A program made the position numbers and the translations under genes. Source: Paenibacillus xylanexedens (GTDB taxonomy: Bacteria > Bacillota > Bacilli > Paenibacillales > Paenibacillaceae). Taken from it: a DNA stretch of 64,000 nt. Positions 57,897 to 64,000 of this stretch are shown here, piece after piece. The stretch is taken from positions 6,262,001-6,326,000 of the forward strand of contig NZ_CP018620.1 of the NCBI RefSeq assembly GCF_001908275.1. The letters are read 5' to 3'. Position 1 is the first letter of the stretch, and each line of letters begins with the position of its first letter. The notes beneath the pieces are model-generated. The model did no database searches. It saw only the letters and a program-made list of their open reading frames with translations, and had not been told where the DNA came from.

Positions 57897-58088
57897 TGCA
57901 TGTTCTCTCCTTCACAGGCATGTTGAGGCCGTTGTCCCTAGAACTAGTTTCCGAAGAGGACAGACATTTTATGCCTGCTTTCGGCATATATTTGTTACGA
58001 CCTCTGACGAAAAGACAACATTTGCTGGTTGCCAGTAACTAAGCAGCCATACGGATGAATGACTCGACCAAGAAAGGATGAACAAACC

Positions 58089-59933
58089 ATGTGCGGTATT
58101 ACCGGCTTCATACAGTGGAATCGGGATTTGACCCAGGAATCAGAGCTGCTGGTCCGTATGACGGATAGCTTGTCGAACCGGGGGCCCGACGCTTCAGGTA
58201 CATGGATCTCCAATCCTTGTGCCTTTGGACATCGGCGTCTTAGTGTAATGGACCCCGAGAACGGCGCACAACCCATGCATGCGTTACAGGGAGATACCTC
58301 CTATACCGTCGTGTATAACGGAGAACTATACAATGCACCCGAGTTGAAAAAGGAATTGCTCCAGCGGGGGCATCAGTTCCGCACGCAATGTGATACGGAA
58401 GTGTTGCTCGCCTCTTATATTGAGTGGGGACCGGCATGTGTTGACCGGTTTAACGGTATTTTTGCTTTTGCCATATGGGATGGGGGACGCGAACAGGTTT
58501 TTATCGCACGAGATCGCCTCGGCGTGAAACCTCTGTTCTACAGTAATAACAAAGACACTCTCGTATTTGGTTCAGAGCCCAAAGCTCTGCTTATTCACCC
58601 TGATGTGGAAGCCGCTGTTGGCCCGGAAGGATTGGCCGAAGTGTTTATCGTAGGGCCTGCACGGACACCAGGACACGGCGTATACTCTTCACTGAGCGAA
58701 CTCAAGCCTGCGCACGCGCTGATCTATAACCGAAACGGGATCCGAACCTATGCCTACTGGAAACTGGAAAGCCAGAATCACGAACATAACCTGGAAGAGA
58801 CGGCAGCCGAGGTACGATCTCTCTTGCAAGATACACTGGAGCGCCAGTTGGCTTCGGATGTTCCAGTATGCTCTCTTTTATCAGGAGGACTGGACTCCAG
58901 TGCCTTGTCTGCATTAGCCGTTGATTATTACAAGCGGACCGGGCAAGGCCAAGTCAGTACGTATTCTGTCGATTATGTGGATAACGCCAAGCATTTCCAG
59001 GCGCATTCCTTTCAGCCGGGTGCAGATGGACCCTGGATTAAGCGAATGGTGGATGAACTCAAGACCGACCATCACTGGATTGAGATTGAGAACGGAGAAC
59101 TGGTTCATGCACTGACACAGGCCATGTTAGTCAGGGATCTGCCAGGTATGGCAGATGTAGACTCCTCGCTCTATTTGTTCTGTAAAGAAATCAAAAAAGG
59201 GGCGACCGTTGCCATTTCAGGCGAAGCAGCGGATGAAGTGTTTGGCGGTTACCCCTGGTTCCATCGCGAAGATATGCTGAACTCCGGTACGTTTCCGTGG
59301 TCTGTAGCGCCTGATATGCGAGCAGCGTTGTTATCCCCGGATATTCGGGAATGGATTCGGCCACTCGATTATTTGGCAGACCGCTATTCGGATGCAGTGG
59401 CTGAAGTGCCTCTGTTGGATGGGGAAACAGGTAAAGCTGCACAAATGCGGGTGATGTCCTACCTGAACATTACACGTTTCATGCCTACACTTCTGGATCG
59501 CAAAGACCGGATGAGCATGGGGGCAGGACTGGAAGTGCGGGTACCTTACTGTGACCATCGTCTGATCCAGTATGTGTTTAACATCCCTTGGGAAATGAAA
59601 ATAACGGGTGGTCGGGAAAAAGGTATTCTGCGTAAAGCACTCGAAGGTGTCCTGCCTGACGATGTGTTATATCGTAAAAAGAGTCCATACCCGAAAACAC
59701 ATAATCCGCAATATCTGGCCGCGGTCAAACAACAGGTACTTGATATCCTGGATGATCCCACTTCGCCGATTTTGCCTTTGATCGACAAAACTCAGATCCG
59801 CAATCTCGCGTCTTCACCAGATGCAGCTTCCAATCTTCCCTGGTTCGGGCAGTTAATGTCCGGTCCCCAGCTATTTGCTTATCTGACTCAGATCAATACC
59901 TGGTTGCGAACATATAAAGTCGCTATTCGTTAG
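58089..59933 (+). CDS. asnO: asparagine synthetase (glutamine-hydrolysing), AsnO-like
   Basis: Converts aspartate, glutamine and ATP to asparagine. The 614-aa length equals that of B. subtilis AsnO, the sporulation-linked paralogue. After removal of Met1, Cys2 (MCGITGF) is the glutaminase nucleophile; NRGPDASG and the YNGELYN loop belong to the same domain (1 to about 200). The synthetase domain has the PP-loop LLSGGLDSSAL (near 260) and SGEAADEVFGGY (near 378). The ATG at 58089 follows AAAGGATG. Confidence 0.94.
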   Translation: MCGITGFIQWNRDLTQESELLVRMTDSLSNRGPDASGTWISNPCAFGHRRLSVMDPENGAQPMHALQGDTSYTVVYNGELYNAPELKKELLQRGHQFRTQCDTEVLLASYIEWGPACVDRFNGIFAFAIWDGGREQVFIARDRLGVKPLFYSNNKDTLVFGSEPKALLIHPDVEAAVGPEGLAEVFIVGPARTPGHGVYSSLSELKPAHALIYNRNGIRTYAYWKLESQNHEHNLEETAAEVRSLLQDTLERQLASDVPVCSLLSGGLDSSALSALAVDYYKRTGQGQVSTYSVDYVDNAKHFQAHSFQPGADGPWIKRMVDELKTDHHWIEIENGELVHALTQAMLVRDLPGMADVDSSLYLFCKEIKKGATVAISGEAADEVFGGYPWFHREDMLNSGTFPWSVAPDMRAALLSPDIREWIRPLDYLADRYSDAVAEVPLLDGETGKAAQMRVMSYLNITRFMPTLLDRKDRMSMGAGLEVRVPYCDHRLIQYVFNIPWEMKITGGREKGILRKALEGVLPDDVLYRKKSPYPKTHNPQYLAAVKQQVLDILDDPTSPILPLIDKTQIRNLASSPDAASNLPWFGQLMSGPQLFAYLTQINTWLRTYKVAIR

Positions 59934-60074: not shown

Positions 60075-61769
60075 TTACACTTTGAATCGACTGACTGACT
60101 CCTGTAACTCTTCCGCCATAGAGGAAAGGTCATTAGCCGCCGAAGCGATTTCCTGCATGGCAGACAGTTGTTCCTCGGACGTTGCACTAACTTCCTCTGT
60201 TCCGGCAGCCGCATTCTCTGTTACTTCCATGATGGTTTTCATCGACACATTGATCTGTTCGACACCCGCCGCCATTTGTTCAATGGATGCAGATACCTCC
60301 TGAGTCTGACCTGCGACATTGCTAACAGCTTCACGAATCTCCTCAAAAGTACCTCCTGCTTTACGGACAAGTTCTATGCCTTCCTGAACCTCAGCGTTTA
60401 CTTCTCCCATGGATTGTGATGCATTATTCATGCCATTGCGTATGGCAGCTACAAGTACACTGATCTGTTCCGCTGATTTCGCAGATTGATCAGACAGCTT
60501 GCGCACCTCGGTTGCTACCACTTCGAATCCACGACCATGCTCACCTGCTCTTGCAGCTTCAATAGCCGCATTAAGAGACAACAGATTTGTTTGTGCCGAT
60601 ATTTCGGAGATACTTTCAACCATAGATCCAATCTCATCTGAATGATTGCCCAGTTCTTCAATAACCTTAGCGAGTACACGTACAGTCTGATGAATCGAGT
60701 TCATTTGCCCAACAGCCGATTGAACCGCATCATTACCAGATATGGTTTTCGCTGACGCATTGGTTGCTTCATCCGACATATTTTGTGTATTCACTGTCAT
60801 CTGCTGAAAGCCTGTGGACAATTCATTAATCGTATGAAACCCGTCTCCAACCATACTCACCTGCGTATCCATACCCGTAGCAATCTCTTCCATCGTTGTA
60901 GCTACCTGTTCGGTCGCTGTCGCCGTCTGCTCTGTACTTGCCGTTAACTCCTCAGAAGAAGCAGCTACCCGATCTGCATTATGACCCACCTGATGGATTA
61001 AATGGCGCAAGTTCTCCATCATCTTGTTGAAGGATTCCGCCAGTTCTCCGATCTCATCCCGATTACGAACAACAATCGCCTCACCCGTCAGGTCTCCATC
61101 AGCAATTCGGCTTGCAGCCCTTGCCACATGTGCAACTGGTTTGGATATGATTCTCCCCATGATCAATGCAATTACCATGCCTAAAACGATCGAGATGATA
61201 CCAATGATCATGATTAAACGAAGTACTTTTTGAATGAGTTGATTGGCATTTACAATGCCAGTGTTCAATGTATTTTGCTGATGTTGTTCCATGGCAGTTA
61301 CCGTTTCTTCAAATCCGGATATGATCGTTGGACCTGTATCTAACAGCATTCTTGTGATCTCGCTAGTTCTGCCTTGTTTTTTCAATTCAATGACACTCTG
61401 TCCAAAAGCATAATATTCCTCCGCACTGCGGTCTGAACGATCCAGAAAATCAATCATCGTTGGGGTTTGAATGCCTGATCTTAATTCTTCGCTGGTTTTA
61501 CGGTAATCTTCATAAAAAGACTTGAATTGTTGCTCGCTTTGATCATTCTCTTCCGTCACAAAATTCCGTAAAGCAACCTGCTGTGATTTCACATCGATGA
61601 TCATGTTTTTGATCGTGAGCAGTTTCGCGGTACGCTCCCGGATTAAATCCGTAAACGTTTTCTCAACCGAGATAAACTGAGTATATGAGATGACTACAAC
61701 GGCTACCAATAAAAGAAGTACAGAACCAAAACCTAAAAGCAATTTCCTACTAATGGATACTCTTTTCAT
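60075..61769 (-). CDS. methyl-accepting chemotaxis protein
   Basis: Transmembrane chemoreceptor of 564 aa. Helix TM1 (about 9 to 30), an extracellular four-helix-bundle sensor (about 31 to 185), TM2 (about 187 to 210), a HAMP domain (about 210 to 265) and a cytoplasmic signalling domain with the hairpin tip [20 protein letters not shown] follow in order. The ligand is unknown. GGGGGAAATGAA precedes the ATG. No other chemotaxis gene is nearby. Confidence 0.96.
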
Positions 61770-62102
61770 TTCATTTCCCCCATACGTTTCAATATATTTT
61801 AATCATGAATTATGTAGTCAGTCTGAATGCTAAAATCTCCCCTCCTTTTACTTCAATAAAATGGATAAATATGAGACTACTTAAATTAGGTTAGCATACT
61901 TGCGCATTCAAATATAGGTCTATAGTATCTACCCATATTATAATTTAGGTTTTTATTCATACCTAACCGACAATATACTACATCTCTTTTATCCTAAATT
62001 ACACATTTTGAATCGTTAGATCAAAATAAAAAAAAAAGACTTTACCCAGCAGTATTTACTGGTGTAAAATCTTTATCAATTTCAGCGCATTTCAATTCAA
62101 AG
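61770..62102 (-). other. intergenic region with an unused Shine-Dalgarno-like element
   Basis: A 333-bp AT-rich gap between the chemoreceptor and the radical-SAM gene. On the minus strand a very strong AAAGGAGGGGAG (61,838 to 61,849) lies about 70 nt before the receptor start with no ATG, GTG or TTG behind it; only an ATT-initiated 8-codon frame could use it. No sigma-D promoter consensus was found. Confidence 0.4.
62027..62071 (-). terminator. terminator after the STM4011-like gene
   Basis: A hairpin pairing GATTTTACACCAGT with ACTGCTGGGTAAAGTC (some G-U and bulged positions) is followed by ten T residues on the minus strand. It ends the radical-SAM operon. Confidence 0.8.
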
Positions 62103-62966
62103 TTAACGATTGATCAATTCCGGATTTCGTTCAAGCAGCCCGCTGCCAAACGTTTCCCTGAACGGGGAATCCTCCATATGGATATAACCGATATAACAGC
62201 CACATTTTTTCATGCGACAAGGCCGATCCGCAGACAAAGCCTGCAAACCATCGCGATACAGATGTCCAATGATCCGGCGATCCTTGTAACAACGCTTCAC
62301 ATGCCCTGACCCTTGTACATAAAATACTTCGGAACCGGCAGCACATCGTTTGCCCAAGCTCTCATAATCCTGCAGATTACCTTCAAAAAGCGGATCAAGC
62401 CCACATAAAAACTGAATCTCTTCCGGTGTGTAATACTTGGGCCGATCTTTGAAGGCATTAACCCACATATACACATCATCCGGCAAAGCCTGTCTCATGG
62501 ACTCAATTGCGGGGAAAGCACTACGGAGTCCGACAGTACCGACACTAAAAGCAAGTCCCATCTGACGCAAGGTCAGACATTGTTTAACAAAAGAAGCCTC
62601 TTTTGTCTCACGAGGATGATACGTCGCCCAAAAGGCCGCTTTATTCGCATCCAACTCCCTCGCCCAATCCAGTTTGACGGACAGGTTGGTTTGAATTGCA
62701 ACCTTATCCACATGTGGCATATGTGACAGCTCAACCATCGCTTCCCGGTACCACCGACGCACCAAAGCTTCACCATAGGGATTGAAGAAAATCGAAAATT
62801 GATGCCCAGCACTCTCTTGCTCCCTGACCCAATTCACAAATTGACGCAATTGTTGTTCATCCACTTCCAACGTCTCTTTGGAATCCACGGTTTTGCTAAA
62901 AGGGCAGTATGGACAGTCGTAATTACAGGAAGACAACTTCCCCCGATAATACAAAGTCGCTCTCAT
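62103..62966 (-). CDS. STM4011-family radical SAM protein
   Basis: A 287-aa radical-SAM protein. The cluster motif CNYDCPYC (CX3CX2C, near residue 14) is at the N-terminus. The C-terminal third has further cysteines (CAAGSEV near 208, VKRCYKD near 226, and PCRMKKCGCY near 255), as expected for auxiliary iron-sulfur or SPASM-like sites. The assignment to the STM4011 family rests on length, motif layout and the adjacent STM4012-like gene. The ATG overlaps the upstream stop by 4 nt. Substrate unknown. Confidence 0.8.
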   Translation of the reverse strand: MRATLYYRGKLSSCNYDCPYCPFSKTVDSKETLEVDEQQLRQFVNWVREQESAGHQFSIFFNPYGEALVRRWYREAMVELSHMPHVDKVAIQTNLSVKLDWARELDANKAAFWATYHPRETKEASFVKQCLTLRQMGLAFSVGTVGLRSAFPAIESMRQALPDDVYMWVNAFKDRPKYYTPEEIQFLCGLDPLFEGNLQDYESLGKRCAAGSEVFYVQGSGHVKRCYKDRRIIGHLYRDGLQALSADRPCRMKKCGCYIGYIHMEDSPFRETFGSGLLERNPELINR

Positions 62967-64000
62967 GAGTAAACAAACCCTTCCATCTGTTCACGAATTT
63001 CGGCAGATATAAGCCAATCTCCAATCGCATCGGAGTAACCTAGTCCTTCTTCTGTCAGACGCAGCACCTGCTTGTCCTCATCACTCTCCAACTCCGCCAT
63101 GCCCTCTGTCAACAGTTCAGCCAACCAGATATAGTCGGACATCACATCGGTACCAAAGCGCTGTTGGTAGTCAGACAGTGTCAATCCCTCGCGATGCAGC
63201 AAGGCTTTCAGAATAAAGCGCCGTCTCTGTTCCTCACGGCTTAACACGATGCCATAATCCGCCACATCGTAGCGCTCAGTTGCCACATAATCGGCAATGA
63301 TGCTCTGTGTGGCCTTGTAACTCACGCCATACTTCGAAGCATAATGTACTTCACTCGTATAAGAGCGTGCGCCACACCCCAGACCAACCATGCCCTCCTC
63401 CTGACAGCTATAAGGCAGAAGCACTTTGGAGGACGACTGTTCTTTGGCAAATCTGCGCATCGAATATTGAACATAACCTTTACTTTTTAAAGTCTCACGT
63501 GCAGCTTTATACAGTTCCATCCGCATGTCCGGTCCCTGACGGCGAATATCATCAGGCTTCACGATTGTATTTTCCCGTGTATACAAGGGATAGATAAAGA
63601 TTTCGCCCGGTTCGTAGGCCAGAACTCTTTCCAATGAATAGATCCACGATTCCACCGTTTGACCCGGCAAACCATAGATCAGATCCAGATTCAACAATGG
63701 GAAATCATACCGAGTAAGCTTCTCAAGCGCTCGTTCAACTTCCTGCGGTTTTTGTGGACGATAGATGGCAGATGCTTCAGCTTCAATAAAACTCTGGATG
63801 CCCATACTGACACGATCCACACTTCGTTCCTTCATGATGGCCAGCTTGGCTTCCGTAACGGTATCCGGCGACGTTTCCACCGAAATCGATGCTTGCGCAG
63901 GGTCCAGCCCCATCACATGTTCAGCAATATCAAACAGACGATTCAACTGAACCTCATTTAATAATGTAGGCGTTCCCCCACCAATCGCGAACCGCGAATA
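62963..64000 (-). CDS. STM4012-family radical SAM protein (HemN-like), N-terminus beyond window
   Basis: The last 345 codons of a HemN/coproporphyrinogen-oxidase-like radical-SAM protein. The glycine-rich SAM-binding motif AIGGGTPTLL is present near the window edge; the CX3CX2C motif must lie just outside. SVETSPD, VDRVSMGIQSF and LDLIYGLPGQT are the usual HemN-like core motifs, followed by a C-terminal winged-helix part (HREGLTLSDYQQRF). The 4-nt overlap with the STM4011-like gene suggests the pair, and probably more genes to the right, form one operon. True heme synthesis is unlikely given that partner. Confidence 0.82.
   Translation of the reverse strand, partial: YSRFAIGGGTPTLLNEVQLNRLFDIAEHVMGLDPAQASISVETSPDTVTEAKLAIMKERSVDRVSMGIQSFIEAEASAIYRPQKPQEVERALEKLTRYDFPLLNLDLIYGLPGQTVESWIYSLERVLAYEPGEIFIYPLYTRENTIVKPDDIRRQGPDMRMELYKAARETLKSKGYVQYSMRRFAKEQSSSKVLLPYSCQEEGMVGLGCGARSYTSEVHYASKYGVSYKATQSIIADYVATERYDVADYGIVLSREEQRRRFILKALLHREGLTLSDYQQRFGTDVMSDYIWLAELLTEGMAELESDEDKQVLRLTEEGLGYSDAIGDWLISAEIREQMEGFVYS

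What the first reader, a model, noticed from the sequence alone, without database searches (positions are those of the whole stretch)
62103..64000. Edge of a possible STM4011/STM4012 radical-SAM system
Two radical-SAM genes overlap by ATGA and end in a strong terminator, so they are the distal end of an operon that begins outside the window. One is HemN-like, the other has an N-terminal CX3CX2C and a cysteine-rich C-terminus. As I recall the families, STM4011 and STM4012 occur together with a hydrolase (STM4013) and other unknown proteins, and no product or substrate is established. This makes it the best candidate for an undescribed modification or natural-product pathway here.
Basis: partly seen in the sequence, partly recalled or inferred. 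Interest (0 to 1): 0.75.

Follow-up and report, generated by a model that had tools for sequence, protein, structure and literature searches.

The report
Five-gene operon with conserved protein tail
The two radical enzymes at the window's edge belong to a complete five-gene operon of unknown function, and one of its proteins ends in a strikingly conserved tail that may be the place where the other enzymes attach and build something.

Summary
The pair at 62103-64000 scores far above the NCBIfam cut-offs for STM4011 and STM4012, overlaps by ATGA and is followed by a strong hairpin with a T-run. Beyond the window the operon is complete: STM4015-STM4014-STM4013-STM4012-STM4011, minus strand.

New here: STM4015, a leucine-rich-repeat protein, ends in an acidic variable linker plus a short motif closed by a C-terminal glutamate: 176 of 178 listed homologues (the two others are truncated), 79 of 79 intact genes in 80 loci found through STM4011, 28 of 28 clusters at 60% identity. 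The other four proteins have ragged ends. The STM4014 model's eight best VIA matches are RimK and LysX/ArgX, ligases known to act on a protein's C-terminal Glu, but PurK and glutathione synthetase lie only 0.6-1.7 Z lower.

Best reading: STM4015 is the substrate or carrier. STM4014 joins an amine to its terminal Glu, the radical-SAM enzymes rework the attached group, and STM4013 acts on a phosphate. All of this chemistry is inferred. Name searches found no paper that describes the system.

The parts
62026..62085 (-). intrinsic-terminator-like hairpin after STM4011
   Evidence: RNA fold -19.6 kcal/mol, z -6.45 against 200 shuffles, T-run after the stem
62103..62966 (-). STM4011-family radical-SAM enzyme, 287 aa: CX3CX2C plus a twitch/SPASM-like C-terminal cysteine set
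62963..64000 (-). STM4012-family HemN-like radical-SAM protein; runs past the window end, probable start at G000:C1:6326351 (351 bases beyond the window). The rest of the operon lies outside the window, same strand: STM4013 G000:C1:6326399-6327184; STM4014 6327177-6328442; STM4015 6328446-6329288, whose last ten codons and stop (6328446-6328478) encode the tail DDWRYPSLTE, proposed to be modified at the terminal Glu
   Evidence: STM4012: NF006067 596 bits for the full frame, cut-off 380; start chosen by me from the ribosome-binding-site-like AGGAGG. STM4013: NF038075 400 bits, cut-off 250; STM4014: NF038074 416, cut-off 175; STM4015: NF038076 357, cut-off 275. Tail: terminal Glu 79 of 79, 28 of 28 clusters at 60%, 30 of 30 representative tails

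Best explanation
The operon is a protein-borne modification or biosynthesis system. STM4015 is the substrate: its leucine-rich-repeat body presents an acidic linker and a C-terminal motif ending in Glu. STM4014 (ATP-grasp) uses ATP to join an amine-bearing building block to that terminal Glu, as LysX/ArgX do on LysW and RimK does on protein S6. STM4012 (HemN-like) and STM4011 (twitch/SPASM-like) then carry out radical chemistry on the attached group or the tail, and STM4013 hydrolyses or transfers a phosphate. The product is either released or kept as a permanent modification. Shown: five conserved genes, family identities, the conserved free C-terminus, fold matches. Inferred: every chemical step, the building block and the fate of the product.
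Confidence: 0.58

Rival explanations
1. The tail itself is the product: STM4014 makes an intramolecular ester or amide in the tail (graspetide-like) and the radical-SAM enzymes modify the conserved Arg-Tyr, so STM4015 is a large precursor protein with a RiPP-like C-terminal core.
For: Foldseek's first hit for STM4014 is PsnB, a graspetide ligase; Tyr at -6 in 26 of 30 and Arg at -7 in 24 of 30 tails; the RiPP maturase SkfB is STM4011's second VIA row and its best profile hit in PDB, E 0.0016.
Against: Position -6 is Ser, Asn or Gly in four of 30 tails and Phe in many close relatives, while only the Glu never changes; no position of the last seven is always Ser, Thr or Lys; the five-gene operon holds no protease or exporter.
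Confidence: 0.17
2. The tail is only a docking signal: the C-terminal Glu motif holds STM4015 on a partner enzyme, and the real substrate is a small metabolite or RNA.
For: Invariant C-terminal motifs can be binding motifs (general knowledge); STM4011's top VIA row is BlsE, which acts on a sugar nucleoside (substrate recalled); the NPP-like STM4013, a Cof-type HAD in some lineages and an adenylyl-sulfate-kinase-family gene in others point to a phosphorylated or nucleotide-like small molecule.
Against: It does not explain why the ATP-grasp partner resembles ligases for a protein's C-terminal Glu. A phosphorylated group could equally be built on the tail.
Confidence: 0.15
3. RimK-like polyglutamylation: STM4014 just adds Glu residues to STM4015, and the other genes act on something else.
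For: RimK rows head the VIA list, tied with LysX/ArgX.
Against: The five genes stay together (76 of 80 loci) and STM4014 is fused to STM4013 in two proteins, so a split of functions is unlikely.
Confidence: 0.06
4. Ordinary heme genes: STM4012 is HemW or HemN and the neighbour is unrelated.
For: STM4012 is a clear HemN-fold homologue (PDB 1olt E 7e-55).
Against: Below HemW and HemN cut-offs; HemW motif HNxxYW in 0 of 97 and the fourth HemN cysteine in 0 of 97 STM4012; the next genes upstream are STM4013-4015, rdgB and RNase PH.
Confidence: 0.02

Closest known systems
STM4011-STM4015 families (NCBIfam NF038073, NF006067, NF038075, NF038074, NF038076)
   Same: All five proteins score above cut-off and lie in the same gene order as in Salmonella, Deinococcus, Methylobacterium and Streptomyces records.
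   Different: Nothing in membership; the family names give no function beyond 'radical SAM' and 'hydrolase'. The C-terminal Glu reading is added here.
Amino-group carrier protein systems: LysW/ArgW with LysX/ArgX (lysine, arginine, vazabitide)
   Same: Carrier with a globular body and a C-terminal extension that ends in Glu, recognised partly through negative charges; RimK-fold ATP-grasp ligase (passages of PMC10433800 and PMC9303977).
   Different: STM4015 is a 280-aa LRR protein, not a small zinc-binding protein ending at Glu54; no EDWGE, no GSWGR in STM4014; two radical-SAM enzymes in place of the kinase, reductase, aminotransferase and hydrolase.
RimK and ribosomal protein S6
   Same: ATP-grasp fold of an enzyme that acts on a protein's C-terminal Glu (activity recalled).
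   Different: Different substrate protein and a five-gene pathway.
Pearlins (PEARL scaffold peptides) and graspetides (PsnB)
   Same: A gene-encoded scaffold on which chemistry is done, at its C-terminus or by an ATP-grasp enzyme.
   Different: No peptide-aminoacyl-tRNA ligase among the five genes, no small precursor gene seen beside the operon; the scaffold is a folded repeat protein.
HemN/HemW/NocN radical-SAM family
   Same: STM4012 aligns with HemN 1olt and the methyltransferase NocN.
   Different: No HNxxYW, no fourth cysteine; its own N-terminal YPxKTAYR in 81 of 97.
Nucleotide pyrophosphatase/phosphodiesterase (NPP) and sulfatase superfamily
   Same: STM4013 aligns its invariant Thr52 with a Thr of the NPP motif (that this Thr is the NPP nucleophile is recalled) and keeps DHG.
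   Different: Only weak similarity (best E 2e-7), no sulfatase C/S-x-P-x-R in 90 of 91.

Membership tests
STM4011 family | NF038073 at or above 200 bits | tested here: met
   401 bits
STM4012 family | NF006067 at or above 380 bits | tested here: met
   596 bits for the full frame
STM4013, STM4014 and STM4015 families | NF038075, NF038074, NF038076 above 250, 175, 275 bits | tested here: met
   400, 416, 357 bits
HemW heme chaperone | TIGR00539 cut-off and HNxxYW heme motif (motif recalled) | tested here: not met
   161 of 205 bits; motif in 0 of 97 STM4012
HemN coproporphyrinogen oxidase | TIGR00538 cut-off and CxxxCxxCxC (motif recalled, seen in 1olt) | tested here: not met
   147 of 325 bits; 0 of 97 with the fourth Cys
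SPASM-domain radical-SAM enzymes | SPASM Pfam domain over cut-off | tested here: not met
   no Pfam SPASM hit in the window's STM4011; the Bacteroides relative scores 18.3 of 21.5 bits; a shorter five-Cys pattern is present in 97 of 98
Amino-group carrier system (LysW-LysX) | carrier with C-terminal Glu | tested here: met
Amino-group carrier system (LysW-LysX) | EDWGE end on a small zinc-binding protein (Glu54 last) | tested here: not met
   tail DDWRYPSLTE on a 280-aa LRR protein
Amino-group carrier system (LysW-LysX) | GSWGR motif in the ligase | tested here: not met
   0 of 89 STM4014
Amino-group carrier system (LysW-LysX) | isopeptide bond on the terminal Glu | not testable with these tools
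   needs mass spectrometry
RimK/LysX-type ATP-grasp | closest fold among solved ATP-grasp ligases | tested here: inconclusive
   top eight VIA rows, but PurK and glutathione synthetase only 0.6-1.7 Z lower
Sulfatase | C/S-x-P-x-R formylglycine motif (recalled) | tested here: not met
   pattern in 1 of 91 STM4013 anywhere; FT motif in 91 of 91
RiPP pathway | dedicated small precursor gene | tested here: inconclusive
   no short ORF (20-90 aa) within 600 nt shared by more than 25 of 76 loci, those 25 the closest relatives; a distant precursor gene is not excluded

The most novel reading that the evidence does not exclude
A new kind of protein-borne radical chemistry: a leucine-rich-repeat protein is charged at its C-terminal glutamate by a RimK/LysX-fold ligase, and two radical-SAM enzymes then build a cofactor, warhead or natural product on it. 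Where a genome holds several STM4015 copies with diverged bodies and nearly the same tail, each would carry the same added group to a different target.
Probability: 0.4. Interest if true: 0.88.

Novelty: new variant of a known kind. Interest (0 to 1): 0.7.

Why it matters
The five genes occur together in at least four phyla (Bacillota, Pseudomonadota, Actinomycetota, Deinococcota), and the papers searched give them no function. Pointing to one residue, the terminal Glu of STM4015, as the likely site of action turns an orphan pathway with two radical-SAM enzymes into one mass-spectrometry experiment. If right, it extends carrier-protein biosynthesis from small LysW-like proteins to a repeat-protein carrier with radical chemistry.

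Tried and rejected
Small precursor peptide: short ORFs 20-90 aa within 600 nt of 76 complete operons; the widest family is in 25 of 76, all among the closest relatives L003-L028; similar families appear there on both strands and in several frames, so it looks like plain DNA similarity. Flanking genes of 53 loci: the widest family (21 of 53) matches ABC oligopeptide-transporter ATPases and lies at varying places, so I read it as a mix of unrelated copies. My first reading, that no sixth gene recurs, was wrong: the adenylyl-sulfate-kinase family does. Phage-borne system: the phage collection gave two short unannotated entries, one 44.9-kb phage held twice with a partial match at its end, and a Salmonella contig for STM4015, and one short entry and the same contig for STM4011; I take these for host DNA, not followed up. 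E. coli: no match in the collection of 5,426 genomes at megablast sensitivity. Another protein with the same tail in the own genome: pattern R[YF]PxxTE-stop found once, in STM4015; the backward control also once. A shared upstream element: 12 upstream stretches compared only by eye, none seen outside the closest clade. Concerted evolution of tails within a genome: nine pairs share 3-6 of the last 6 residues at 46-76% body identity, but only one has body identity under 50%, so the comparison with 146 cross-genome pairs (mean 2.7 of 6) is not matched and is only suggestive. The promoter scan was no better than shuffles, 9 against 8.6. STM4011's fold: Foldseek puts MoaA, anSME and viperin-like enzymes first, VIA-align BlsE and SkfB, so its substrate class stays open. 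Literature: searches by name and by concept gave no paper on the system as far as titles and abstract starts show; two were for LysW, 98 for DUF6745 (none), 101 for 2RA8 (none). Two papers hold an STM4013 or STM4015 locus tag in a table (passages seen).

Full report
What was found. The two minus-strand genes at the window's right edge are STM4011 (62103-62966) and STM4012 (62963 to 351 bases beyond the window), overlapping by ATGA, both above NCBIfam cut-offs. The window is G000:C1:6262001-6326000. I took the next 13 kb. Reading back from the edge come STM4013 (G000:C1:6326399-6327184), STM4014 (6327177-6328442) and STM4015 (6328446-6329288), each above cut-off, then a gap and the housekeeping genes rdgB and RNase PH. 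The operon is transcribed STM4015 to STM4011, and a strong hairpin with a T-run follows STM4011.

Conservation of the set. A scan of genome contigs with STM4011 gave 80 loci (the best 80 of 211), 76 of them with Paenibacillus in the record title. In 76 of 80 my ORF caller found the five genes complete and in order; the four exceptions are a locus with frameshift-like breaks, one cut by the contig end and two with STM4012 missed or split. The same order is annotated in Salmonella, Deinococcus, Methylobacterium and Streptomyces records, and tblastn finds it in Nonomuraea and Embleya. A Bacteroides plasmid has only a fragment of STM4013 and no STM4012 hit. Among 299 Bacillota genomes STM4011 and STM4015 are each over cut-off in the same six; 26 of 299 ring for STM4011 at E 0.001, 20 of them below the cut-off. 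Among 197 genomes of the family they match in 74 and 75 at E <= 1e-40. The extra genome, G392, holds an STM4015 whose frame runs into a remnant of STM4014; G424, counted in both, holds only remnants of four of the genes. In this sample the set is gained and lost as a unit.

The tail. Aligning nine STM4015 proteins from diverse records showed an invariant last residue, Glu. Of 178 homologues listed by two searches, 176 end in Glu; the other two are 227 and 237 aa long and stop inside the repeat domain. Clustering 279 sequences gives 28 groups at 60% identity and 12 at 50%; every representative ends in Glu, with Gly, Ser, Thr or Ala before it. In the same loci the ends of STM4014, STM4013, STM4012 and STM4011 vary. 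The count least biased by choice comes from the 80 loci found through STM4011: 79 intact STM4015 genes, 79 ending Thr-Glu, though all from one family of bacteria. Two more distant Bacillota copies (G151, G232) also end in Glu, as do 20 of 20 STM4015 ORFs at the plasmid loci, including copies with no operon beside them in Calothrix, Embleya and Streptomyces cadmiisoli. Over 30 representative tails the last seven positions have entropies of 0 to 1.8 bits and the preceding eighteen 2.1 to 3.4; residues -9 to -20 carry a mean net charge of -4.6, range -7 to +2. N-termini differ (a WGR domain in Bacteroides; about 140 extra residues in Calothrix), but none of the 176 goes on past the Glu.

A sixth gene in part of the family. 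While checking this report I found that a gene of the adenylyl-sulfate-kinase family follows STM4011 directly, on the same strand, in 24 of 79 Paenibacillus-type loci (gap -13 to +305 nt), with three more 533-1224 nt away and a piece in the decayed G424 locus; four of four scanned are above the TIGR00455 cut-off. It is not beside the operon in the window's own clade; the window's genome has one relative, 45% identical, far away at G000:C1:2944186. With STM4013 and the HAD it points to phosphate or nucleotide chemistry.

How it may work. LysX joins the amino group of aminoadipate to the side-chain carboxyl of the C-terminal Glu of LysW, and changing that Glu in the haloarchaeal ArgW gave an arginine auxotroph (PMC10433800, passages read). 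Carrier proteins of this kind are recognised through their globular domain and C-terminal extension, with negative charges on the carrier playing a part (PMC9303977, passages read). STM4015 has the same plan: body, acidic linker, terminal Glu, and a RimK/LysX-like partner. I therefore propose that STM4014 loads the terminal Glu and that the two radical-SAM enzymes and the phosphate-handling enzymes complete the group. That STM4014 acts on the Glu is inferred; the building block is unknown; no releasing amidase is in the operon, so the group may be permanent. The differences from LysW systems (no EDWGE, no GSWGR, a 280-aa repeat protein, two radical-SAM enzymes) keep it from being filed as a member.

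Novelty. The families are known by name. Searches by name and by concept found no description of the system; most subscription papers are not in that library, so this is not proof of absence. PDB 2ra8 is a relative of STM4015, labelled uncharacterized; no held paper names it.

Noticed in passing
24 loci among L041-L082, directly after STM4011 (exact list): A gene of the adenylyl-sulfate-kinase family follows STM4011 on the same strand in 24 of 79 Paenibacillus-type loci, a likely sixth component there; not next to the operon in the window's own clade.
   Followed up: partly
L084:14872-16181, L085:7530-8855, L087:7216-8680, L090:13938-15259, L120:2424-4046, L122:14855-16152, L091:14896-16325: A DUF6745 protein (with LRR-like repeats in Deinococcus and Methylobacterium) and a ~100-aa protein with conserved GE[LV]TGH[SA]H and QREY motifs sit as a pair beside the operon in 7 loci of Deinococcus, Methylobacterium, Streptomyces and Nonomuraea; function unknown, not found by tblastn in the Paenibacillus or Salmonella loci.
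   Followed up: partly
L084, L087, L089, L091, L120-L124: Several genomes hold two or more STM4015 copies, some far from the operon; body identity 46-76% within a genome, 3-6 of the last 6 residues shared.
   Followed up: partly
L088:11210-12775 and L083:13837-14571: Bacteroides STM4011 is fused to a Cof-type HAD phosphatase, and Salmonella has a Cof-type HAD gene directly after STM4011: a likely further component in some lineages.
   Followed up: partly
L132, L133: Two genomes of the family (G392, G424) hold only decayed remnants of the operon.
   Followed up: yes
L083: In a Salmonella Infantis plasmid record the operon lies between ompL (after sulfoquinovose genes) and a HAD gene, typA and glnA, a region that looks chromosomal.
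   Followed up: no
window 60075-61769 and 58059-59933: Left of the operon are an ORF that reads like a methyl-accepting chemotaxis protein and one that reads like a glutamine-dependent asparagine synthase (from the translations only); no sign of a link to the operon.
   Followed up: no
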